A stretch of DNA of 64,000 nucleotides from Acidomonas methanolica (lineage in GTDB: Bacteria > Pseudomonadota > Alphaproteobacteria > Acetobacterales > Acetobacteraceae), in assembly GCF_004346035.1 (NCBI RefSeq), contig NZ_SLZN01000003.1, positions 62,001 through 126,000 on the forward strand, given 5' to 3'. Under the pieces are notes generated by a model. That model was not told the origin of the DNA and made no database searches. It saw only the letters and a program-made list of their open reading frames with translations. Position numbers and translations under genes: made by a program. Below are positions 487 to 12,110 of this stretch, one piece after another (position 1 is the first letter of the stretch; each line of letters begins with the position of its first letter).

Positions 487-864
487 ATGGGGGGAAACGG
501 GCGGATGCCCCTGTTTCTGGTTTCCGCCGTGCCGCCCTGGTCTCCCGCGCGCCGCGCGCGATCCGCGCTGATCCTGCCCGAGGGGAAACAGGACGGCGGA
601 GGATGGGCGCGCGCAGTGCGGCGCGAGGAGCGCTCCTTACTGATGCACGGAATCGGCTGCGTCTGTTGCGCGCGGCCGGACGCCGCCGCAGACCTGCTCG
701 CGGGGCTGTTCTGGGAATGGGTGCGGGCACGGCAGACGCCGTTCGACGAGGTGGTGCTGGTGGAGGAGGACGCGGCGGCGGTCGAGAGGCGGGCGCTGGC
801 GCTCCGCTCCCACGCGCTCGTGGCCGCGCGTTTCGATCTCCGCCCGGACCGTCTCCCGGTTTGA
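487..864 (+). CDS. Small COG0523/CobW-like domain protein, reduced
   Basis: A 125-residue protein, or 119 residues if the ATG at 505 is used; that ATG has a GGGGGGA ribosome site nine bases upstream. From residue 7 it starts MPLFLVS, where COG0523 GTPases start with the beta strand leading to their P-loop, but no GxxGxGK(S/T) Walker A motif follows. Around residues 56-62 it has IGCVCC, like the GCxCC metal-binding motif of COG0523 proteins. Then come an LL..LF..V helix and TPFDEVVLVEE, which sits where family members have a PF..VVIETTG strand. COG0523 proteins are metal chaperone GTPases. Loss of the nucleotide loop suggests either a diverged metal-binding remnant or coincidence. It is divergent from metH. 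I infer the family from motifs only. Confidence 0.5.
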   Translation: MGGNGRMPLFLVSAVPPWSPARRARSALILPEGKQDGGGWARAVRREERSLLMHGIGCVCCARPDAAADLLAGLFWEWVRARQTPFDEVVLVEEDAAAVERRALALRSHALVAARFDLRPDRLPV

Positions 865-1052: not shown

Positions 1053-3272
1053 GTGCAGCAAAACGAGCGTGTTCCGGGAAGCGGCGAATCGCCTCAGCCG
1101 GGTTATATTCGTCTGCGCGCCGCGATGGCGGCTGCGAAATATCACGGTATCGAGCTTGATATCCGGGATTTCGCCGCCGAGGCGGGGGAGGAATCGCCGT
1201 CTCCGGCGTCGCTGGCGCGCTGGCTGAACGAGCAGGGCGCGGTCGCCAAGGGCATGCGCGTGCGCTGGCGGTATCTGGTGCGCCTCACCAACACGCCGCC
1301 GATCGTCCTGATGTTCCGCGACGGTTCGGCGGCGCTGATGGTCGGCGCCAATGCCGATCGGGGCGTCGTCTGGCTGCGCGATCCGCTCACCGATGAGGGG
1401 GCCGCCCCCGTCGCCGTGGACGAGCTGCGCCTGTCGCAGGTCTGGACGGGCGACGTCCTGCTGGTGAAGCGGCGCAGAGACCAGTCCGAGGCGGATGCGC
1501 CGTTCGATCTCGGCTGGTTCGTGAAGATCGTCCTGCGGGAGCGCCGGGCGCTGCGCGATATCCTGATCGCCTCCGTCGTGCTGAGCGTCCTGACGATCTT
1601 TCCCGCCCTGCTGGTGATGCAGGTGATCGACCGCGTCGTGAACTATCGCTCGATGGCGACGCTGGTCTCGATCATCGGCATCGTCGTCATCCTCTCCTTC
1701 TATGAGATCCTCCTGACCTATGCGCGCCGGGAGCTGATGCTGGTGGTCTCCACGCGCATCGACACGCGGCTTTCCCTGCATGCGTTCAACCGCTTGCTCG
1801 CCCTGCCGCTCGAATTCTACGAGCGGCAGCAGACCGGCCGCGTGCTCGGCCGCTACATGGCCATCTATAAGGTGCGCGACTTCCTGACCGGCAAGCTGAT
1901 GACCGTGTTTCTCGACATGTTCACCCTGCTCGTCATCCTGCCGCTGCTCTTCTACATGAGCGCCACCCTGGCCTGGATGACGGTGGCCTGCGCGGGCCTC
2001 ATCGGGCTGATCGCCGTGGTGTTCATCGGGCCGATCCGCAGGATTTACGGGCGGCTCGTCGATGCCGAGATGGAACGCGGATCGGTGCTGTACGAGACCG
2101 TCGCGGGCATCCGCACCGTCAAGACGCTGGCGCTCGAACCGTCGCGCCGGGAAATGTGGGACGAGACGACGGCCGACGTCGTGCGCTGGAAGCTCGCCGC
2201 CGGACGGATGGCGAACTGGCCGCAGACGCTCGTCATGCCGCTCGACATGTTCATGTCGCGCGGGATCATCCTGGTCGGGGCCTATCTCGCCCTGCAATCC
2301 TCGGGCGGCATCGCCGCGGGCGGTCTGATGGCGTTCATGATGCTGGGCGGCCGCGTCACGGCGCCGCTGGTGGGCCTCGCCCGCCTGCTCGAGGATCTGA
2401 ACGAGGTCTCCACCGCGCTCGGCGAGGCGGGCATGGTTCTGAACCAGCCGACGGAAACCAAGGCGCTGACGAACGGCATGCGTCCGCGCGTCAAGGGAGC
2501 GTTGTCCTTCACGGATGTGAACTTCACCTATCCCGGGGCGGCGGTCAAAGCGCTCAACAACGTCAATTTCGAGATTCCCGCCGGGACGATGCTGGGGCTG
2601 GTCGGGCGCTCGGGCTCGGGAAAATCGACGGTCACGCGGCTGCTGCAGGGGGTTTCGCGCACGTACACCGGATATCTCCGGCTCGACGGGATCGAGATGC
2701 GCGAGATCAACCTGACGCATCTGCGCCGGTCCTTCGGCGTCGTGTTGCAGGACAACTTCCTCTTCCGTGGCACGGTGCGGGACAACATCACCGCCGGACG
2801 CCCCGGCCTGACCATCGACGACGTGGTGCGCGCCGCCCGCCTTGCCGGAGCCGAGGAGTTCATCGAGCGGATGCCGGCGGGCTATGACACCTGGATCGAA
2901 GAAGGCTCGACCAATATTTCCGGCGGTCAGCGGCAGCGTCTGGCCATCGCGCGCGCGGTGATCTCCGACCCGAAACTGATGATTCTCGACGAGGCGACCT
3001 CGGCGCTCGACCCGGAAAGCGAGGCGCTGGTGAACGCCAATCTCCAGAGGATCGGCAAGGGGCGCACCATGGTGATCGTGTCCCACCGGCTCTCGTCCCT
3101 CGTCGATTGCGATCTGATCTGCGTGATGGATCAGGGCAGCGTCGTCGATCTCGCACCGCATGCCGTGCTGCTGGAGAGGTGCGAAATCTACCGCATGCTC
3201 TGGATGCAGCAGAACCGGCATCAATATGGCGGCGAGTCCAGTCGCGCCTCCATGCTGGCGGAAGGAGAGTGA
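1053..3272 (+). CDS. Type I secretion ABC exporter (permease/ATPase) with C39-like domain
   Basis: A 739-residue inner-membrane half-transporter of the HlyB type. Residues ~20-140 resemble a C39 peptidase fold (AAKYHGIEL, late WTGDVLLVK), but the catalytic Cys and His are absent: RAAMAA stands where the Cys motif should be, and DGSAAL replaces the usual DGHFVVL-type His motif. It should therefore bind rather than cleave a substrate. The membrane domain spans ~165-450. The ATPase has Walker A GRSGSGKST near 518, an ISGGQ signature near 621 and Walker B LMILDEATSALD near 640. GTG 1053 was chosen because AGAGGA (1041-1046) lies six bases upstream; TTG 1047 is too close. Its stop is two bases from the adaptor start, so the two are surely co-translated. 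It powers one-step export from the cytoplasm. Confidence 0.92.
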   Translation: MQQNERVPGSGESPQPGYIRLRAAMAAAKYHGIELDIRDFAAEAGEESPSPASLARWLNEQGAVAKGMRVRWRYLVRLTNTPPIVLMFRDGSAALMVGANADRGVVWLRDPLTDEGAAPVAVDELRLSQVWTGDVLLVKRRRDQSEADAPFDLGWFVKIVLRERRALRDILIASVVLSVLTIFPALLVMQVIDRVVNYRSMATLVSIIGIVVILSFYEILLTYARRELMLVVSTRIDTRLSLHAFNRLLALPLEFYERQQTGRVLGRYMAIYKVRDFLTGKLMTVFLDMFTLLVILPLLFYMSATLAWMTVACAGLIGLIAVVFIGPIRRIYGRLVDAEMERGSVLYETVAGIRTVKTLALEPSRREMWDETTADVVRWKLAAGRMANWPQTLVMPLDMFMSRGIILVGAYLALQSSGGIAAGGLMAFMMLGGRVTAPLVGLARLLEDLNEVSTALGEAGMVLNQPTETKALTNGMRPRVKGALSFTDVNFTYPGAAVKALNNVNFEIPAGTMLGLVGRSGSGKSTVTRLLQGVSRTYTGYLRLDGIEMREINLTHLRRSFGVVLQDNFLFRGTVRDNITAGRPGLTIDDVVRAARLAGAEEFIERMPAGYDTWIEEGSTNISGGQRQRLAIARAVISDPKLMILDEATSALDPESEALVNANLQRIGKGRTMVIVSHRLSSLVDCDLICVMDQGSVVDLAPHAVLLERCEIYRMLWMQQNRHQYGGESSRASMLAEGE

Positions 3273-3274
3273 CA

Positions 3275-4762
3275 ATGAGCGGTTCCGAACTTCTCCCTCC
3301 CGGCCAGCCGGACGAATCCGGGCGTGACGACGCGGACGGGCGCGCGCAACCGGGCGGCGTGCCGTCCCGCCCGCGCGATCCCTTCGCCCAGGAAGGCATG
3401 CCGCTCGCGCTGCTGGAGTTCCACTCGCCGAGTGCCGCCATGGTCAACCTGCCGCCGACCCCGTCGGCGCAGCGGATCATCTGGCTCGTCGCGGGGCTCT
3501 TCACCGCCAGCTTCGTCGCTGCCGGCGTCTTCCCGATCAACGAGGTCATCAACGCGCCGGGGCGGCTGGTCTCCACCGGCTCCACGATCGTGGTGCAGCC
3601 TTTGGAAACCTCGATCATCCGCTCCATCGACGTGCATCCCGGGGATTTCGTCAAGCAGGGGCAGATCGTGGCACATCTCGACCCGACGATCTCCGGGGCC
3701 GATCTGACCAACATGCGGGATCAGAAGGCCGCCTATCTGGCCGAGGTGACCCGGCTGCGCGACGAGGCGGACGGCAAGGACTATCATCCGGTGCTGGACG
3801 ACAAGGCGTCGGTGGACGAGGGCGCGGCATTCCAGCGACGCCGGCAGGAATATGACGCGAAGATCGCCCAGTACGACGGGCAGATCGCTTCCCTCCAGAG
3901 CGAACTCGAAGGGTATCTGGCCAGCGCGGCGATGTATCAGAGGCGCACGCAGGTCGCGAGTCAGGTGCTGGAGATGCGCAGGCGCCTGCAACAGCAGCAG
4001 GTCGGCAGCAAGCTGAACACGCTCGGCGCGGAGGCCGATCTGACGGAGTCCGAGCGCAATCAGGTGGCCGCCGTCAAATCCGCCAATGCGTCCCGCGCCC
4101 GGCTGGCGGCGACGCGGGCGGAGAAGCAGAATTACATCGAAGCCTGGAAGGCGGAGATCTACACCGAACTTTCCAAGGCGCAGCATAATCTCGACGACGC
4201 CACCAGCAACTACGAGAAGGCCCGCCTGCGCGGCAATCTGGTCGAGCTGCGCGCGCCGGCGGATGCGGTCGTGCTGACCGTCTCGCGCCTGTCCGTCGGC
4301 TCGGTCGCGACCTCGGCGCAGCAACTCCTCACCATGGTGCCGACCGGCTATGGGCTCGAGCTGGAGGCGGTGCTGCGCGGGCAGGATGTGGGCTTCGTCC
4401 ATATCGGCGATCATACGCTGATCAAGTTCACCACTTTCCCCTACGACCAGTTCGGCGGCGCGGAGGGAAGCGTGCGGACCATCAGCGCCGATGCGTTCGG
4501 CAACCAGTCCACCGATGACGGCCTGCCCACCGCGCGCGACACGGCGGCCCAGTCCTCTCCCGACGGGCCGTCCCTTTCGGGCTACTATCGCGTGCGCGTG
4601 CGGATCGATCGCTATACCCTGCATGGCGTGCCGAATTTCTTTCACCCGATGCCCGGCCTGCCTGCGACGGCCAACATCGATGTAGGCAAGCGCACCGTGT
4701 TGCGTTACTTCTTCAACCGTCTGATTCCGGCAGCGACCAACGGAATGCGGGAGCCGTCCTGA
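3275..4762 (+). CDS. HlyD-family periplasmic adaptor of type I secretion
   Basis: A 495-residue membrane fusion protein that links the ABC exporter to an outer-membrane channel. It has a charged cytoplasmic N-terminus (~65 residues), one membrane segment (IIWLVAGLFTASFVAAGVF, ~68-86), and a lipoyl-like strand (VVQPLETSIIRSIDV). A long helical region (~130-310) is rich in Gln, Glu and Arg. The C-terminal beta-barrel ends PGLPATANIDVGKRTVLRY, the HlyD family ending. The start follows GAAGGAG (3261-3267). No TolC-type outer-membrane protein is encoded nearby, so the channel must come from elsewhere in the genome. Partner of the upstream ABC protein. Confidence 0.9.
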   Translation: MSGSELLPPGQPDESGRDDADGRAQPGGVPSRPRDPFAQEGMPLALLEFHSPSAAMVNLPPTPSAQRIIWLVAGLFTASFVAAGVFPINEVINAPGRLVSTGSTIVVQPLETSIIRSIDVHPGDFVKQGQIVAHLDPTISGADLTNMRDQKAAYLAEVTRLRDEADGKDYHPVLDDKASVDEGAAFQRRRQEYDAKIAQYDGQIASLQSELEGYLASAAMYQRRTQVASQVLEMRRRLQQQQVGSKLNTLGAEADLTESERNQVAAVKSANASRARLAATRAEKQNYIEAWKAEIYTELSKAQHNLDDATSNYEKARLRGNLVELRAPADAVVLTVSRLSVGSVATSAQQLLTMVPTGYGLELEAVLRGQDVGFVHIGDHTLIKFTTFPYDQFGGAEGSVRTISADAFGNQSTDDGLPTARDTAAQSSPDGPSLSGYYRVRVRIDRYTLHGVPNFFHPMPGLPATANIDVGKRTVLRYFFNRLIPAATNGMREPS

Positions 4763-4809
4763 GCGACGCCATGGCATAGAGGCCGCAAGAGGGGGGAGAT
4801 CGTTCGGCC

Positions 4810-6603
4810 GTGTCTCTGAAGCTCAGGGTTGCCTCCCATTTCTCGCGCGAGGCGCGGCTTGCCTACGGCGTTTCCCTGCTGGAGGGCGGGGAGAACGCCG
4901 CGCGCGGCTTCCGGCTGCTCAGCGCGCTTGCGACCGAAGGCGTCACCGAGGCGCAATATCAGGTGGGCCGGGCCTATCTCGACGGGACGGGCGTTCCGGC
5001 CAGCCTCCCGGACGGCGCGCACTGGATGATGCGCGCGGCGCGGGATGGGCATGTCAAGGCGCGCTTCTCCATTGCGATATTACATGTGCTCGGCCTGCCC
5101 GAAGGGATCGAGTCCGGCGCGGCGGCCTCCCCTCTGGCGGTCGGGCCGGGAATCCGGAAACCCGATTTCGCCGAGGGCGCGCGCTGGGCGCGTCTGGCGG
5201 CGGAGGCCGGCTCGCCCGACGCCCAGGCGCTGCTGGGATATATCCTGACCAACGGCCCGGAGGGGGTGGCCGATCCCGCCGCGGCGTGGAGCTGGTACGA
5301 AAAGGCGGCGGCGGCCGGGGCGGCGCAGGGTTATCTCGGGCTCGCCGGCCTGCGGCTGAAGGGCGAGCCGGACGAGGCCCAGATCGCGCAGGCCGTGCAC
5401 GAGTTGCGGGAGGCGACGAAAGGCGGCCTGTCCAGCGCGTTCCACATGCTGGGGCTCATGCATGAACAGGGGTGGGGCGTTGCCCGTGACCTCGCGGCGG
5501 CGGCGGAATGCTATCGCAAGGCGGCGGAGAAGAATTTCCCCCAGGCTCAGGCGCGCTACGGATTTCTGCTCATTTCCGGCGTGGGCGTAGCGCGGGACGT
5601 GCATCGCGCGGAAACCTGGCTGCGCCGCGCGGCGCTGAGCGGCGAGACGGAGGCCGCCGCGCTGCTGGGCGACATCTACGCGCGCGGCGGCGAGTTGCCG
5701 CCCAATTATCTCGAATCGGCGAAATGGTATCGTCTGGCGGCGGATCGCGGCCATGCGGCGGCGGCGCGGGCGCTGGGGTTGCTGTTTCTGACGGGCGCGG
5801 GGGTGCATCGCGATACGGAGGAAGCGGCGAAATGGTTCCGTTTCGCCGCCGAGCACGGAGACCGGACCTCGGATGCCGATCTCGGCAATCTCGCGCTGAT
5901 GGGGCGCGGCACGGAGGGGGAAAGGATCGAGCTCAGGCAGCGTTTCGAACGCGCGGCGCGCTCGGGCGATCTCGTGGGGGCCTTCAATCTGGGGGTCTGC
6001 CATGCCGAGGGCGTGGGGACGCCGCGCGACGAGCGGGAGGCCGCGCGCTGGCTGCAAAGTGCGGCGGACGGAGTGGTCAATGCGCAGTACTGGCTCGGCC
6101 GCATGATGATCGAGGGGCGCGGCGTCGAGACCGATCTCGCGGGCGGCTGCGCCTGGCTCGAAAAGGCGGCGAATGCGGGAATGGCCGACGCGGCGGTGCT
6201 TCTGGCGCGGTTGCTGGTGAGCGGGAAGGCGCCGGGCGGCAAGGACCATGCCCGGGCGCTCGATCTCTACCACGCGGCGGCGTCGCAAGGTCATGTGAGC
6301 GCGATGTTCTCTCTCGGCGCGCTGTACGGCGGCGGCCACGATGTCCCCGAGGACCGGCACGCGGCTCGGCTCTGGTTCGAGCGTGCGGCGGCGCGGGGCG
6401 ATGCGCTCGGGCAACTCATGTTCGGGCGGTATCTGATCCGCGGTCTGGGAGGCGCGCAGGATATCGAGGCCGGGCGCGGGTGGCTCGAACGGGCGAAGGC
6501 GCAGAACGTCGCCGAGGCGGCGGCGGAGCTGGAGCGGCTTGGTCCGGCCGGCGCCGTGGAGCGAGGTGCGGGACGGCATGGCGCGGCGCGGCGTGCCGGA
6601 TGA
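4810..6603 (+). CDS. Sel1-repeat (TPR-like) scaffold protein
   Basis: A 597-residue protein made almost wholly of ~36-residue Sel1 repeats (forms such as AQYQVGRAYLDGTGV, AARWLQSAADGVVNAQYWLG); I count roughly fourteen. Sel1 repeats form a right-handed helical solenoid that binds other proteins. No signal peptide or membrane segment is visible, so it should be cytoplasmic unless exported by the adjacent type I system. GTG 4810 is the likely start, preceded by a GGGGGGAGA tract. Its 3' end overlaps the following glycosyltransferase by 26 bases, implying translational coupling. A role as a scaffold or chaperone for the glycosylation/export machinery is an inference from context. Confidence 0.85.
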   Translation: MSLKLRVASHFSREARLAYGVSLLEGGENAARGFRLLSALATEGVTEAQYQVGRAYLDGTGVPASLPDGAHWMMRAARDGHVKARFSIAILHVLGLPEGIESGAAASPLAVGPGIRKPDFAEGARWARLAAEAGSPDAQALLGYILTNGPEGVADPAAAWSWYEKAAAAGAAQGYLGLAGLRLKGEPDEAQIAQAVHELREATKGGLSSAFHMLGLMHEQGWGVARDLAAAAECYRKAAEKNFPQAQARYGFLLISGVGVARDVHRAETWLRRAALSGETEAAALLGDIYARGGELPPNYLESAKWYRLAADRGHAAAARALGLLFLTGAGVHRDTEEAAKWFRFAAEHGDRTSDADLGNLALMGRGTEGERIELRQRFERAARSGDLVGAFNLGVCHAEGVGTPRDEREAARWLQSAADGVVNAQYWLGRMMIEGRGVETDLAGGCAWLEKAANAGMADAAVLLARLLVSGKAPGGKDHARALDLYHAAASQGHVSAMFSLGALYGGGHDVPEDRHAARLWFERAAARGDALGQLMFGRYLIRGLGGAQDIEAGRGWLERAKAQNVAEAAAELERLGPAGAVERGAGRHGAARRAG

Positions 6604-9523
6604 GGGCGAGGGGGCGAGTCCCGCCCCGATTTTCAGCGGTTATCGTCATCGCGTCACGGAAGCCGATCGGGCGGCGTGGCAGGCCTGGGCGGACGGGCGG
6701 GCGCAGGAGGCGTTCCGGCGCGGCGACGAGGCGTCCCGGGCCGGGCGCTTCGACGAGGCGGTACGGTGGCTGGATCGCGCCGCCCGCATGGCGCGCGACA
6801 ATCCGCATGTCCTGCTCGCCCTGGCGCTCGCGCAGCTTGGCGCCGGGCACTGGGAGGATGTGCTGGACACGGCGCGCCGGATCAGCAGGCGGTGGCCCTC
6901 ACGTGAAGCCCTGGGGCTTCAGGCGCTGGCATGCAGCCGCATGGGCGATCTCGACGGGGCGCTCCGCGCGGTTGCGCTTCTGCTCGCCCGTTTCGCGCCG
7001 AGCGCTGAGATGTTTCCGCTCGCGGGGGATCTGGCCGAGGCGGCCGGATTCCCGGGCTGGTGCGGCGCGAACAATCGAGGTGAGCTTCTGGGCGCGGCGC
7101 CCGGGCCGGTGCGGCTGCGTTTGTCCGGCCCACGCGGCGGGGTGCGCGAGGTGGAGACGCTGCCCGCCGCCTTGCCTGACGGCTGGCAGGTCGCGCGCGC
7201 GCTCGACGTAACCTGCGCGGGCCGCCCGCTGCTGGGCTCGCCGCTCGATCTGGCGGCGCTCAGGCGGAGCGAGGGCTGCGTGACGCCGGTCGCCGGCGGC
7301 TGGGAGGGCTGGCTCTGGCATCCGGCGGACCCGGATTTCACGCCGCTCCTGCGGATTGGGGGCCAGAGTGGCGAGGAGCAGAGCGGCGAGGAACGGGAGA
7401 TCGCGCTCTCCGAACTCGCCGCCGGGACGCCCGTCGATGCGCCGCTCGCCCGGCCGAGACGGTTCTTCCTGCCCTCCGATGCGCTGCCTCCGGGGCCGGT
7501 TTCGGTGACGGATATCTACAGCGCGCCGCTCCCCGGCAGCCCACTCATTCCCGCGCTTGGCCGCCTGTTCGACGGAGCGCGGTCGCGCGGCTTGCCGCCC
7601 GGTTTTCGTCCGGTCCGGGTCGGAACGCGCCTTGGAACGCCCGAGATCGGCGACAGGGCAACTGGTTGGCTCGTGGTGATTCCGGCCTATCGGGACCTGG
7701 CGTCGCTGAAACCCTGCCTGAAGCGGGTTCTGGCCGACAGGCGGGACGGGGTGGAGGTGCTCGTCGTGGACGACGCGACGCCGGAGCCCGCCCTGGCCCG
7801 CTTTCTCGACGGTCTGGCGGCGCAGGGAGCGATCACGCTCGTCCGCCATGCGACGAACCGGGGGTTTCCCGCCGCGGCGAATGCCGGTCTGCGGCGTGCG
7901 GCGGGGCGGGACGTGGTGCTGCTCAACAGCGATACGCTCGTGCCGCCGGGCTGGCTGGAGCGGCTGGGCGCGGTGCTGGATCGCGCGCCGGAGATCGGCA
8001 CGGCGACGCCGTTCTCCAACGATGCGAGCATCCTTTCCTACCCCTCGGCGACCAGTGTCAATCCGGTGCCCGATACGCTCACGGCGCGGGAGACCGACCG
8101 GCTCTGCGCGGCGCTGGCCGATGCGGCGCTGGTGGATCTGCCGACCGCCAACGGCTTCTGCATGGCGATCCGGGGTGATTGTCTGGCCCAGACCGGCTTG
8201 TTGCGCGAGGATCTGTTCGGGCGCGGCTACGGGGAGGAGAACGAGTTCTGCCTGCGCGCCGCCGCGCTGGGCTGGCGGCATGTCGCCGCGCCGACGCTGT
8301 TCGTGACGCATCGCGGCTCCGCCTCGTTCGGCGATCAGCGCAAGGCGCTGATGCAGCGCAACATGGGCGTGCTGAATGCGCTGCATCCCGGTTATGACGG
8401 TTTGATCCGGCGGTTTCACCGGCGCGATCCGCTGGCCGGGCTCCGGCGGCGGCTCGACATGGCGCGGATGAAGCTGCGGCGCGGGCGGCGGCCGGTCCTC
8501 GCCATGATCCTGCATGACGGCGGCGGCGGGGTCGCGCGGGTCGTGCGCGAGCGCGGTGCGGCGTTCGCGCGGCAGGGGTGGTTCGTCGTCACGATCCGGC
8601 CCGATGTCGACGGGTGCCGGGTGGCGGCGGCGGAGGAGGATTTCCCCAATCTGCTCTTTCGCCTGCCGACGGAACGGGATGATCTCGTGGCGTTCCTCGC
8701 CGGGATCGGAACGCGGGCCGTCGAATGGCACCATCTGGTCGGCCATGCGCCGGAGATCAGGCGGCTGCATGAGTGGCTCGGCGTTCCCTGCGATATTTTC
8801 GTTCATGACTACGCCGCGTTCTGTCAGCGCATCGCCCTGAGCGGCGCGGAAGGACGGTTTTGCGGCGAGCCGGATGTCGCGGGCTGCATCGCCTGCGTCA
8901 GGGAACGGGGCAGCTATCTCGGCGAGACGATCGGCGTGAAGGCGCTGCTGCGCCGCTCGGCGCGGGAATTCGCCGCCGCGCGTCGGGTGATGGCGCCCTC
9001 AGGCGATGCCGTGCGGCGGTTGCAGCGCCATTTCCCGGCGCTGTCCGTCGAGACCGTGCCGCTGGAGGATGACGCCGCCCGGCGTGTGACGCGGCGCGCG
9101 GCGGGGCCGGGGCGGAGAATCGGCATTGTCGGTGGAATCGGCGTGGAGAAAGGTTTCGACGTGGTGCTGGAGCTCGCGCGGGATGCGCGGGTGCGGGATT
9201 TGCCGGTCGAATTCGTGCTGATCGGCCATACGCCGGACGACGAGGCATTGATGGCGACGGGGCGGGTCTGGGTCACGGGCGAATACCGGGGCGACGAGAT
9301 TGGGCGGCTGATCGGCGGAGCGGAGCTCGATTTTGGGTTGATTCCATCGATCTGTCCGGAGACATGGTGTTTCGCCCTCGGCGATCTGTGGCGCGCGGGC
9401 GTACCGGCCGTCGTGTTCGATCTCGGCGCGCAGGCGGAGCGGGTGCGGCGCACGGGGCTGGGTTGGGTGGTGCCGCCCTCGCTCCCGGCGGCGATGTTCA
9501 ACAATCTTCTGTTGAGTCTCTGA
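6578..9523 (+). CDS. Large TPR-GT2-GT4 fusion glycosyltransferase
   Basis: A 981-residue cytoplasmic protein. Residues ~20-130 form TPR-like helices (EAVRWLDRAARMARDNPHVL). A linker beta domain follows. From ~363 comes a GT-A (family 2) domain: VVIPAYRDLASLKPCL, VEVLVVDDA, LLNSDTLVPPGW, then GYGEENEFCLRA and THRGSASFG, typical of rhamnosyltransferase-like enzymes. From ~636 a GT-B (family 4-like) domain begins (MILHDGGGGVARVV) and ends with PETWCFALGDLWRAGVPAVV. The usual second Glu of the GT4 E-x7-E motif is Asp here. It could add two sugars in series to a protein or lipid acceptor. ATG 6578 was preferred over the upstream TTG 6539; the ribosome site is weak (GAGG). Acceptor and donor sugars are unknown. 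Confidence 0.85.
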   Translation: MARRGVPDEGEGASPAPIFSGYRHRVTEADRAAWQAWADGRAQEAFRRGDEASRAGRFDEAVRWLDRAARMARDNPHVLLALALAQLGAGHWEDVLDTARRISRRWPSREALGLQALACSRMGDLDGALRAVALLLARFAPSAEMFPLAGDLAEAAGFPGWCGANNRGELLGAAPGPVRLRLSGPRGGVREVETLPAALPDGWQVARALDVTCAGRPLLGSPLDLAALRRSEGCVTPVAGGWEGWLWHPADPDFTPLLRIGGQSGEEQSGEEREIALSELAAGTPVDAPLARPRRFFLPSDALPPGPVSVTDIYSAPLPGSPLIPALGRLFDGARSRGLPPGFRPVRVGTRLGTPEIGDRATGWLVVIPAYRDLASLKPCLKRVLADRRDGVEVLVVDDATPEPALARFLDGLAAQGAITLVRHATNRGFPAAANAGLRRAAGRDVVLLNSDTLVPPGWLERLGAVLDRAPEIGTATPFSNDASILSYPSATSVNPVPDTLTARETDRLCAALADAALVDLPTANGFCMAIRGDCLAQTGLLREDLFGRGYGEENEFCLRAAALGWRHVAAPTLFVTHRGSASFGDQRKALMQRNMGVLNALHPGYDGLIRRFHRRDPLAGLRRRLDMARMKLRRGRRPVLAMILHDGGGGVARVVRERGAAFARQGWFVVTIRPDVDGCRVAAAEEDFPNLLFRLPTERDDLVAFLAGIGTRAVEWHHLVGHAPEIRRLHEWLGVPCDIFVHDYAAFCQRIALSGAEGRFCGEPDVAGCIACVRERGSYLGETIGVKALLRRSAREFAAARRVMAPSGDAVRRLQRHFPALSVETVPLEDDAARRVTRRAAGPGRRIGIVGGIGVEKGFDVVLELARDARVRDLPVEFVLIGHTPDDEALMATGRVWVTGEYRGDEIGRLIGGAELDFGLIPSICPETWCFALGDLWRAGVPAVVFDLGAQAERVRRTGLGWVVPPSLPAAMFNNLLLSL

Positions 9524-9646
9524 AAACGGCATGTTTTTTACCTCTGCCGGAATTTACTGAAAATACATATCTTGTCATTATGCTCGGCGACATGCGTTCT
9601 ATTTTCCCTGGCTGTCATTGTCTTCTGTCCGGAGCGGATCATTTTT

Positions 9647-10795
9647 ATGACTCAGTCTTTGCAAAACCCTGATCGTGGCCGCGTCGTCGCGCTGAAATCC
9701 ACCGCTCAACTCATGACATTGAAGCCGGGACTGTTTTGCGTGTTCTATGCTGCGGGACAAGGCATCGGCGTCGCGAACGGTCTGCCGGGCGTCCGGCTGT
9801 CCCCCGCGCCCGGGACATCCGGCGACGCGGTGACGATCACGACCATGACCCCGGACGGATGGCTGGGGGCCACGGATGGCGGGGCGCTCGTCCGCGTTGT
9901 CGGAGCGGCGGCGCAGATCCTCGTCACCTCCTATGATATGGCGGATGCGACGCGCGAGATGCCGCGTTTGCAGGTGGTGCAGATCGGGGGCGTGCAGGCG
10001 GCCGGGGCGGCGGAGGCCGGTCAGGCCAATGGGGAAGCGGGTGTCAATCCCCGGGCCGGTTCGGCCGCAAGGACCCCCGCCGTGCAGGCCCGGGCGTCGC
10101 AGGCGCAGGGCAGGCAGGCGGTGCGGGGGCCGGATGCGTCCCCGGTGTCCGGAGTGCCGGTGTCGGAGGCCGCGGCCGCGCCGCAGGGTCAATTCGAGGT
10201 GGCGGCCCATATCCAGCGGCGCGGCGATGTCGGCGTGCGTCTGGGCGAATGGATGGGCGTGCGCGGCAGCCAGGCCTGGATCGAAGGCTTCGGCATTGCG
10301 CCGATCGATTCGGTGCCGGTCGAGGATATCGAATATCAGGCGGTGCTCGGGAAGAACTGGCTGTCTCCCTGGGTGCAGGGCGGCCAGTATTGCGGAAGCC
10401 GCGGCATGGCTCTGCCCATTCTCGGGCTTCGCGTCCGTCTGAAGGGGGACGCCGAGAAGGCGTATGATCTGAGCGTTTCCGCGACCTTCACCGATGGATC
10501 GGCCGTAGGGCCAGTCGGCGCGGATCAGACGCTCGAAGCCGAGTCGCTGGCCCCGCTCGAAGCGTTCCTCGTGGAATTCCGTCCCCGGAGCGCACCGTCC
10601 ACCAGGGCCGGCGTAAAAGCCGCGCCGGCGTCTTCGGCCGGGAAGCGGACCGCGACGAAGCCGGTGGCGCCTCCGCCCTCCGCTCCCGCGGTTGCCGCCG
10701 GAAAGACGGCGAAAAAGGCCGATCCGGTGCGGAAAAAGGCTGCGCCGCCCGAGACGGTTCCCCCCGCCCCGCGGCGCAAACCCGCGAAAGTCTGA
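9647..10795 (+). CDS. ChW-like repeat protein with basic Pro/Ala/Lys tail
   Basis: A 382-residue protein with no Sec signal peptide. The N-terminal ~110 residues form an unrecognised beta-rich domain. Residues ~112-180 are Ala/Gln/Gly-rich and look disordered. From ~182 to ~312 there are three related segments of the ChW (hydrophobic with conserved Trp) type; the clearest is KNWLSPWVQGGQYCGSRGMA followed by LGLRVRL. The last ~70 residues are rich in Lys, Ala and Pro and end RRKPAKV. ChW repeats are best known from clostridial surface proteins. Here the protein sits inside a type I secretion and glycosyltransferase block, so it is a candidate exported and glycosylated substrate. A cytoplasmic role is possible. 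ATG 9647 has GGAG 12 bases upstream. Confidence 0.65.
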   Translation: MTQSLQNPDRGRVVALKSTAQLMTLKPGLFCVFYAAGQGIGVANGLPGVRLSPAPGTSGDAVTITTMTPDGWLGATDGGALVRVVGAAAQILVTSYDMADATREMPRLQVVQIGGVQAAGAAEAGQANGEAGVNPRAGSAARTPAVQARASQAQGRQAVRGPDASPVSGVPVSEAAAAPQGQFEVAAHIQRRGDVGVRLGEWMGVRGSQAWIEGFGIAPIDSVPVEDIEYQAVLGKNWLSPWVQGGQYCGSRGMALPILGLRVRLKGDAEKAYDLSVSATFTDGSAVGPVGADQTLEAESLAPLEAFLVEFRPRSAPSTRAGVKAAPASSAGKRTATKPVAPPPSAPAVAAGKTAKKADPVRKKAAPPETVPPAPRRKPAKV

Positions 10796-10868
10796 GTGCC
10801 CCGCCGGGCCGCCCGCCTCTCGACCGTGGCGGGCGCCGGAGGGATGGTTCCCGGGTTCAACGGTCAGA

Positions 10869-12110
10869 ATGTGGGACGCGGCCGCCTTGCGTTTTCTTTT
10901 CATCCACCAGAATTTCCCTGGGCAATTCGTCCATATCCTCCGATATCTGGGTGATCAGGGCGGTCACGAGATCGTTTTCATCTCCGAGGCGAACGAGGGG
11001 CAATTGCCGGGCGTGCGGCGCGTGGTCTATCGACCGGCCCGGCGTCCCGCCGAACAGACCCATCCGGCCCTGCGCGAGCTTGAGGCGGCGGTCTATCGCG
11101 CCGAGGCGGTGGCGCGCTCGGCGCGCACCTTGCGCGACAATCTCGGCTATACGCCCGACATCATCATCGGCCATCACGGCTGGGGGGAATTGCTCAATCT
11201 CGTCGATATCTACCCGGACGCGCCGATGCTGGGGTATTTCGAGTTCTTCTACCATGCCGACCGGAACGATGTCGGGTTCGATCCGGAGTTTCCGCCCGTT
11301 CCGGAGCTTCTTCCGGCCGTGCGGCTCAAGAACGCCGTCAATCTGCAGGCCCTGACGCTGCCCGGTCATGGGCAGACGCCGACGAGGTTCCAGCTCGACA
11401 CCTATCCTGAGTGGGCGCGGCCGCGCATTTCACTCGTAGCGGAAGGGGTGGATATCGACCAGTGCAAGCCAGATCCGACGGCCGCGCGGCGGCGTTTTAC
11501 CCTCAAGGACGTGACGGTCGCGCCGGGCGAGAAGCTCGTCACCTATGTCGCGCGCGATCTGGAGCCGTATCGTGGCTTTCACAGCTTCATGCGCGCCCTG
11601 CCGCGCGTGCTGGACGCGCGGCCGGATGCGCGGGTCATCCTCGTCGGCGGGGACGGCGTCAGCTACGGCGCGCCCTGTCAGGGCGGGTCATGGCGTCAGG
11701 CCCTGCTGGGGGAGCTGGGCGCGCGCCTCGACCTGTCTCGCGTTCATTTCGTCGGCAAGGTGGCTTATCCGGAATATCAGGCGCTGCTGCGGCGCTCCGA
11801 CGCGCATGTCTATCTGACCTACCCCTTTGTGGCGTCATGGTCGATGCGCGAGGCGATGGCGTCGGGATGTGCGATTGTCGGCAGCCGGACCGGCCCGGTG
11901 GAGGAATTCATCACCGACGGGGAAACGGGCCGCCTCGTGCCGTTCCTCGACCCCAGGGCGATTGCGGACGGCATCCTCGAAGTGCTGGAGGACCGGGCGC
12001 TCGCACGGCGGATACGGCGTCAGGCGCGGCGCTTCGCCGAGGACAATCTGCGGCTGGACCAGTATCTCTCCACCTATGAAGGCGTCATCCGCCGGGTGGC
12101 CGGGGCGTGA
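10869..12110 (+). CDS. Family 4 glycosyltransferase
   Basis: A 413-residue GT-B glycosyltransferase. The N-terminal domain opens FLFIHQNFPGQFVHI and contains the conserved PDIIIGHHGWGE segment; the C-terminal GT4 domain has KLVTYVARDLEPYRGFHSF, VILVGGDGVSYG, VHFVGKVAYPEYQALLRRSD and SMREAMASGCAIVGSRTGPV with the acidic and Gly/Ser nucleotide-sugar-binding features. It would act in the cytoplasm on a nucleotide-sugar donor. ATG 10869 is placed directly before the conserved first strand. It is the last of the six co-directional genes of the secretion block, 73 bases after the ChW gene. Its acceptor may be the adjacent ChW protein or a surface glycan. Confidence 0.88.
   Translation: MWDAAALRFLFIHQNFPGQFVHILRYLGDQGGHEIVFISEANEGQLPGVRRVVYRPARRPAEQTHPALRELEAAVYRAEAVARSARTLRDNLGYTPDIIIGHHGWGELLNLVDIYPDAPMLGYFEFFYHADRNDVGFDPEFPPVPELLPAVRLKNAVNLQALTLPGHGQTPTRFQLDTYPEWARPRISLVAEGVDIDQCKPDPTAARRRFTLKDVTVAPGEKLVTYVARDLEPYRGFHSFMRALPRVLDARPDARVILVGGDGVSYGAPCQGGSWRQALLGELGARLDLSRVHFVGKVAYPEYQALLRRSDAHVYLTYPFVASWSMREAMASGCAIVGSRTGPVEEFITDGETGRLVPFLDPRAIADGILEVLEDRALARRIRRQARRFAEDNLRLDQYLSTYEGVIRRVAGA

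What the first reader, a model, noticed from the sequence alone, without database searches (positions are those of the whole stretch)
1053..12110. Six-gene type I secretion, Sel1, glycosyltransferase and ChW-repeat block
Six plus-strand genes, two of them overlapping or nearly so, pair a type I exporter (ABC and HlyD) with a Sel1 scaffold, a giant two-domain glycosyltransferase, a leaderless ChW-like protein and a second glycosyltransferase. I know no named system with this make-up. A working model: cytoplasmic glycosylation of a leaderless protein, then one-step export to the surface. The C39-like domain without catalytic residues fits substrate binding without cleavage, as in HlyB. The ChW protein is the only local candidate substrate; a larger substrate could lie elsewhere.
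Basis: partly seen in the sequence, partly recalled or inferred. Interest (0 to 1): 0.75.

Follow-up and report, generated by a model that had tools for sequence, protein, structure and literature searches.

The report
Glycosylation-linked type I secretion operon
A block of six genes kept together in many acetic acid bacteria and their relatives looks like a machine that adds sugars to a small protein made elsewhere in the genome and exports it; the gene first guessed to be the exported protein is more likely a helper of the sugar-adding enzymes.

Summary
The six genes are real, and the set is conserved. The leaderless ChW-like protein is in 104 of 150 sampled genomes of the family. 'Glycosylate in the cytoplasm, then export by a type I system' is supported, but by genomics only. 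The ChW protein is probably not the cargo. Its domains are fused in frame to glycosyltransferases in three genomes, in two architectures, so it looks like a glycosyltransferase partner. The likely cargo is a small RTX/beta-roll protein encoded in trans. The window's genome has one PF00353 match (a 442-aa protein between two glycosyltransferase genes) and one type I HlyD adaptor above the family cut-off, that of this operon. In an outgroup, all six genes, an RTX gene and an RgpF gene share one 15-kb cluster. Against: six operon-bearing genomes show no such RTX protein, co-occurrence is confounded by phylogeny, and no glycan has been shown. I call it a new variant of a known kind.

The parts
1053..3272 (+). 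Type I secretion ABC exporter (C39-like domain + TMD + NBD)
   Evidence: Pfam ABC_membrane, ABC_tran; aligns over 24-723 to TIGR01846 HlyB, 530.4 bits, below its cut-off 725.55; HlyB is the best solved match for the C39-like domain plus TMD part
1092..1470 (+). C39-like domain without catalytic Cys and His (approximate limits)
   Evidence: column counts over 38 orthologues; alignment to HlyB
3275..4762 (+). HlyD-type periplasmic adaptor
   Evidence: TIGR01843 326.6 bits, cut-off 208.65; the only match over the cut-off in the window's genome
4810..6603 (+). Sel1-repeat protein, presumed scaffold
   Evidence: Pfam Sel1, 10 stretches, 226 bits
6578..9523 (+). TPR - GT2 - GT4 glycosyltransferase
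   Evidence: Pfam TPR_19, Glycos_transf_2, Glyco_trans_1_4; homologues in one frame with ChW in L168 and L169
9647..10795 (+). Leaderless two-domain ChW-like protein, presumed glycosyltransferase partner, with basic disordered tail
   Evidence: ChW 20.6 bits; AF2 model: beta domains about 11-115 and 183-315, linker and tail low pLDDT
10187..10600 (+). ChW-like C-terminal domain (most conserved part)
   Evidence: 36 invariant columns in 52 sequences; AF2 pLDDT 94.5, pTM 0.89
10869..12110 (+). GT4-family glycosyltransferase (Glyco_trans_4_3 + Glycos_transf_1)
   Evidence: Pfam 195.5 and 74.1 bits

Best explanation
The operon encodes a type I exporter coupled to a cytoplasmic protein-glycosylation module. 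The cargo is a small acidic, Ser/Thr-rich RTX/beta-roll protein with a C-terminal secretion domain, encoded at a second locus (own genome G000:C4, about 82110-83435, outside the window). The TPR-GT2-GT4 enzyme, the second GT4 enzyme and the Sel1 scaffold build a glycan on this protein before export. The ChW-like protein acts as a recognition partner of the glycosyltransferase (acceptor or glycan binding). The ABC transporter holds the cargo through its non-cleaving C39-like domain and passes it with HlyD through a TolC-type pore encoded elsewhere. Shown: gene set, order, conservation, ChW-GT fusions, RTX adjacency in divergent loci, the one-adaptor/one-RTX count. Inferred: glycosylation of the RTX protein, its export by this transporter, the roles of ChW and Sel1.
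For: Conserved operon: 104/150 genomes with ChW; six in order in 37/40 and 74/80 loci, flanks much less conserved. ChW in one frame with GTs in L168, L169, L171. RTX gene immediately upstream of ChW or GT in L168, L170, L173, L080. All six genes + RTX + RgpF in one cluster in L170. Own genome: one PF00353 match, one HlyD over the cut-off. By comparing, 17 genomes have exactly one A2-type RTX match and exactly one type I adaptor, on the ChW contig near the operon. RTX gene nested between two GT genes in 11 of 20 fetched RTX neighbourhoods plus the own genome. Own RTX protein pI 4.05, S+T 25%, K+R 0.9%. A C39-like domain in the transporter correlates with RTX cargo (PMC8277102, passages read).
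Against: Of 104 operon-bearing genomes, seven lack an RTX match by model A2. A5 found a divergent, partial one in G069, so six remain without: G029, G040, G067, G115, G132, G139. Loose RTX matches are also in 37 of 46 operon-negative genomes; only strict thresholds separate them (46/104 against 2/46 at E<=1e-20). All six A2 seeds come from genomes that carry ChW, and the comparison is not corrected for phylogeny. G004 and G081 have a strong RTX match but no ChW. The own RTX protein only just passes PF00353 (23.7 against 23 bits) and is 42.5 kDa, below the 50 kDa given for typical cargo of such transporters. The GT-flanked RTX locus is absent in 9 of 20 fetched, and the RTX-flanking GT was found in only 2 of 12 genomes searched. 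No direct evidence of a glycan.
Confidence: 0.65

Rival explanations
1. One reading: the ChW protein itself is glycosylated and exported.
For: It is encoded in the operon, shows no leader, and has a low-complexity linker and a basic tail.
Against: Its domains occur as in-frame parts of glycosyltransferases in three genomes. A separate RTX gene sits beside it or its GT in divergent loci. The protein is basic (pI 9.7), unlike RTX cargo.
Confidence: 0.08
2. The glycosyltransferases build an extracellular polysaccharide or LPS part; the RTX protein is a separate, unglycosylated matrix or polysaccharide-binding protein exported by the same operon.
For: GT2/GT4/RgpF families often build polysaccharides (established family knowledge, not tested). 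No genome-wide search for a flippase or polymerase was made.
Against: No Wzx, Wzy or priming transferase passes its Pfam cut-off among the six proteins; a Wzy_C_2 hit to the GT2-GT4 protein is far below it (13.7 against 28.5 bits). ChW/GT genes pair with T1SS or RTX genes even when rearranged.
Confidence: 0.15
3. The exporter carries another, non-RTX cargo; the RTX link is coincidental or lineage-specific.
For: Six operon-bearing genomes show no RTX match with A2 or A5.
Against: One adaptor and one RTX match in 17 genomes, and RTX adjacency in four divergent loci.
Confidence: 0.12

Closest known systems
HlyB/HlyD-type type I secretion of RTX proteins
   Same: ABC with degenerate C39-like domain, HlyD adaptor, leaderless acidic RTX protein with C-terminal module as likely cargo, TolC-type pore elsewhere
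   Different: RTX gene not beside the exporter in the window's genome; glycosyltransferases, Sel1 and ChW-like proteins are present, and no acyltransferase was among the six; ABC scores below the HlyB subfamily cut-off
Cytoplasmic glycosylation of type V secreted adhesins (HMW1C/NGT and BAHT)
   Same: Glycosyltransferase genes co-transcribed with exporter genes (HMW1C, EtpC); modification before export (PMC8151025, passages read)
   Different: Type I not type V export; GT2/GT4 enzymes with TPR, Sel1 and ChW partners; several transferases, so probably a longer glycan (inference)
SwmA, RTX S-layer protein of marine Synechococcus
   Same: An RTX surface protein that appears to be glycosylated (PMC3034196, passage read); that GT and ABC genes serve it is recalled, not checked
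   Different: SwmA is 130 kDa and cyanobacterial; the candidate here is about 42 kDa; no homology tested
ChW domain proteins of Clostridia, Lactococcus and others
   Same: Sequence similarity: 52 of 52 orthologues hit PF07538 at E<=0.1
   Different: Those are surface proteins and endolysins of Gram-positive bacteria (PMC5817068, passages read); here leaderless and fused to glycosyltransferases in some genomes

Membership tests
Type I secretion system | HlyD-family type I adaptor | tested here: met
   TIGR01843 326.6 bits, cut-off 208.65
Type I secretion system | ABC exporter with TMD and NBD | tested here: met
   PF00664 and PF00005 above cut-offs
Type I secretion system | TolC-type outer membrane factor | tested here: inconclusive
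   None in the operon; 34 OEP matches elsewhere in the genome; partner not identified
Type I secretion system | Cargo exported in one step without a Sec signal | not testable with these tools
   Needs the secretome of a deletion mutant
HlyB subfamily (TIGR01846) | Score above the curated cut-off | tested here: not met
   530.4 against 725.55 bits
HlyB-like non-cleaving exporters | C39-like domain lacking catalytic Cys/His | tested here: met
   No Cys in columns 14-23 and no His in columns 90-97 of 38 orthologues; alignment to HlyB
ChW (PF07538) | Score above the gathering cut-off | tested here: not met
   20.6 against 22 bits for the window protein; homologues in L173 (22.6 bits) and L171 (28.7 bits) pass
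RTX proteins (candidate cargo, outside window) | PF00353 repeats above cut-off | tested here: met
   23.7 against 23 bits, marginal
RTX proteins (candidate cargo, outside window) | Calcium binding and type I export | not testable with these tools
   Bench work
HMW1C/NGT glycosyltransferases | HMW1C-type catalytic domain | tested here: not met
   Pfam-A and NCBIfam scans of both enzymes gave GT2 and GT4 families, TPR and weak other hits, no HMW1C model

The most novel reading that the evidence does not exclude
A secretion-glycosylation machine, shared by most of a bacterial family, that I found described nowhere. A multi-enzyme cytoplasmic complex (TPR-GT2-GT4, GT4, Sel1) uses an all-beta ChW-type module to recognise a beta-solenoid acceptor and glycosylates it. 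The acceptor is then handed to a dedicated type I exporter, giving acetic acid bacteria a glycoprotein coat.
Probability: 0.42. Interest if true: 0.78.

Novelty: new variant of a known kind. Interest (0 to 1): 0.62.

Why it matters
If true, acetic acid bacteria (food fermenters, insect gut symbionts, cellulose makers) share a dedicated glycoprotein-secretion route that the listings of my ten paper searches did not show. It would be a type I counterpart of the HMW1C systems. It would also suggest a function for ChW-type domains in Gram-negative cells, and give a testable link between a single exporter, a single cargo and a defined set of glycosyltransferases.

Tried and rejected
Genome-contig scan with the ChW protein alone: 77 pattern matches, none confirmed by tblastn; with alignment A1, 294 relatives, 80 kept. 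PDB sequence search with the ChW profile: no match at E<=1. PDB search with the C39-like domain alone gave two weak matches (E 0.018 and 0.039) to a proteasome-associated ATPase, taken as chance; with the TMD added HlyB comes first. Fold search of the full ChW model: no Foldseek match at E<=0.001; N-domain matches are middling (best Z 5.9, rmsd 3.1, 84 aligned). C-domain alone: best Foldseek E 0.35, best Z 3.5 (rmsd 4.0, 91 aligned); this does not show that the fold is new. PHROGs: no hit for ChW. ChW as cargo: rejected, see rivals. A local RTX cargo: an RTX C-terminal profile found none in the window or in the 20 kb upstream (which scanned all loci then held). The RTX-flanking glycosyltransferase in RTX-negative genomes: none in any of the seven, and also none in three RTX-positive ones; 2 of 12 searched had it. 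A composition scan of three loci of the RTX-negative genomes (L063, L065, L070) found no beta-roll ORF. A first synteny control by ORF clustering was too weak, because the ORF caller missed genes in low-GC loci (the six genes scored only 23-34 of 41 loci, neighbours up to 22); it was replaced. Paper searches: no listed paper is on this gene set; several listings were capped (5 of 1,389, 15 of 63, 10 of 127), and subscription journals and preprints are mostly not held.
Full report
Observation. The first gene has HlyB-like ABC architecture; the second is a type I HlyD (326.6 bits, cut-off 208.65). The third has ten Sel1 stretches. The fourth (about 980 aa) is TPR-GT2-GT4. The fifth has a sub-threshold ChW hit (20.6 against 22 bits). 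The sixth is a GT4 enzyme with Glyco_trans_4_3. HlyD starts 2 bases after ABC ends or overlaps it, and the fourth gene overlaps the third (candidate starts). The neighbours read as housekeeping genes: metH-like upstream on the minus strand and inorganic-pyrophosphatase-like downstream (names by my reading of the translations).

Conservation. The ChW protein matches 104 of 150 sampled genomes of the window's family, its own included. That the family is Acetobacteraceae is my inference from the named relatives. The 46 negatives stay negative with the 34-sequence profile A1 (A1 is known to match elsewhere). I fetched 40 neighbourhoods chosen because they carry ChW. In 37, all six genes are present in the same order and strand. 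Of the other three, L068 ends at a contig edge, L049 has only GT2-GT4, ChW and GT4 with other genes beyond, and L080 has a divergent ChW without the other five. Of 80 named loci from GTDB species genomes (Acetobacter, Gluconobacter, Bombella, Asaia, Commensalibacter, Rhodopila, Acidisphaera and others; 294 relatives found, best 80 kept), 74 have all six in order. The other six (L093, L099, L109, L118, L142, L153) are cut by a contig end on the upstream side. As a control, seven flanking genes of the window are found in 3 to 22 of the 40 loci by the same criterion that finds each of the six in 37 to 39. By that stricter criterion 35 loci hold all six, and 19 of these have none of three flanking genes. 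In a class sample of 385 genomes, 3 genomes of other families hit.

What ChW is. In two genomes of other families (L168, L169) homologues of the GT2-GT4 enzyme and ChW lie in one open frame (1334 and 1197 aa, the latter cut by its contig start). In L171 the ChW part lies between a GT61 and a GT2 domain in one frame of 969 aa. These fusions point to a working partnership with glycosyltransferases in the cytoplasm, not to a cargo. AF2 gives two confident all-beta domains (about 11-115 and 183-315) joined by a disordered linker, with a disordered tail; the protein is basic, pI 9.7. The C-domain alone models at pLDDT 94.5 and pTM 0.89, without a convincing PDB match. ChW hits occur in 52 of 52 orthologues scanned. 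By eye the C-domain holds two ChW-like units (inference). A 2018 review gives the ligand of ChW domains as unknown (PMC5817068, passages).

The likely cargo. In divergent loci L168, L170, L173 and L080 an RTX/beta-roll gene (399, 303, 1043 and 402 aa) lies immediately upstream of the ChW or GT gene. L170, from another family, holds ABC, HlyD, Sel1, GT2-GT4, ChW, GT4, an RTX gene and an RgpF gene within about 15 kb. L168's region also has an RgpF gene nearby (L181) but no ABC or HlyD in the stretch fetched. In the window's genome a PF00353 search gave one match, in a 442-aa protein on contig C4. It is flanked by a GT4-GT2 gene, a gene with two GT4 stretches and an RgpF gene. I fetched 20 further RTX neighbourhoods from operon-bearing genomes, picked by me from the matches listed where the contig was long enough. 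The RTX gene lies between the same two GT genes in 11, with RgpF in 9 of these. Most of the 16 aligned proteins start MA(I/V)VTVxGAsG or similar, and they share beta-roll repeats and a conserved C-terminal module (A5). The own protein is acidic (pI 4.05), 25% Ser+Thr and 0.9% Lys+Arg.

One exporter, one cargo. With TIGR01843 the window's genome has one adaptor over the cut-off, that of the operon. I gave 40 genomes: 31 of the 104 operon-bearing ones (24 of the 26 with exactly one A2 match, and the 7 with none) and the 9 operon-negative ones without A2 match. Of the 31, 28 have exactly one adaptor over the cut-off; G019, G057 and G122 have two. Of the 24 with one RTX match, 21 have one adaptor. 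In 17 of these it lies on the same contig as ChW, within about 10 kb (my comparison). In the other four (G009, G051, G056, G080) it is on another contig of a fragmented assembly. Of the 9 operon-negative genomes, 5 also have an adaptor over the cut-off, so type I systems are not confined to this operon. A review states that an RTX domain in the cargo correlates with a C39-like domain in the transporter, with exceptions, and for cargo above 50 kDa (PMC8277102, passages). Here that domain lacks the catalytic Cys and His. The outer membrane partner is not in the operon; the genome has many OEP matches.

Results against. RTX model A2 matches 97 of 104 operon-bearing and 37 of 46 operon-negative genomes at E<=1e-3. 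Separation appears only at strict thresholds (57/104 against 3/46 at 1e-18; 46/104 against 2/46 at 1e-20). All six A2 seeds come from ChW-bearing genomes, and phylogeny was not corrected for. Operon-negative genomes carry more RTX matches (median 18 against 4). Six operon-bearing genomes have no RTX match with A2 or A5. Two operon-negative genomes have strong RTX matches (G004, 90% complete; G081, 73% complete). The own candidate is 42.5 kDa, smaller than the cargo size given in the review. Glycosylation itself is inferred from gene content.

Comparison. It works like an RTX type I system joined to a cytoplasmic glycosylation module of the kind known for type V adhesins (PMC8151025, passages). 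The ABC is below the HlyB subfamily cut-off. The enzymes are GT2/GT4, not HMW1C. SwmA, an RTX S-layer protein that appears to be glycosylated, is known in cyanobacteria (PMC3034196, passage). No paper in the listings of the ten searches named under Tried and rejected is on this gene set. Verdict: a real, conserved operon that I could not find described; new variant of a known kind.

Noticed in passing
L171:6592-9498: One open frame with GT61, ChW-like and GT2 domains, a second, different fusion of this domain with glycosyltransferases.
   Followed up: partly
window 10187-10600: The ChW-like C-domain gives a confident AF2 model without a convincing PDB match; the family profile matched no solved chain at E<=1.
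   Followed up: partly
L049 (G133): The operon appears split: only GT2-GT4, ChW and GT4 remain together, with genes reading as tgt and queG where Sel1, HlyD and ABC would be; an RTX gene lies about 5 kb away.
   Followed up: no
L180 (G000:C30), about 9165-11624: A second Sel1 frame lies beside a Gly/Trp-rich 420-aa protein next to polysaccharide-type genes.
   Followed up: no
window 487-864: Small plus-strand ORF just upstream of the ABC gene; a homologue is present in 3 of the 40 fetched loci. Function not assigned.
   Followed up: no
G085:C22:213080-213379: RTX C-terminal module in an open frame of 8358 aa, a possible giant adhesin in an operon-bearing genome.
   Followed up: no
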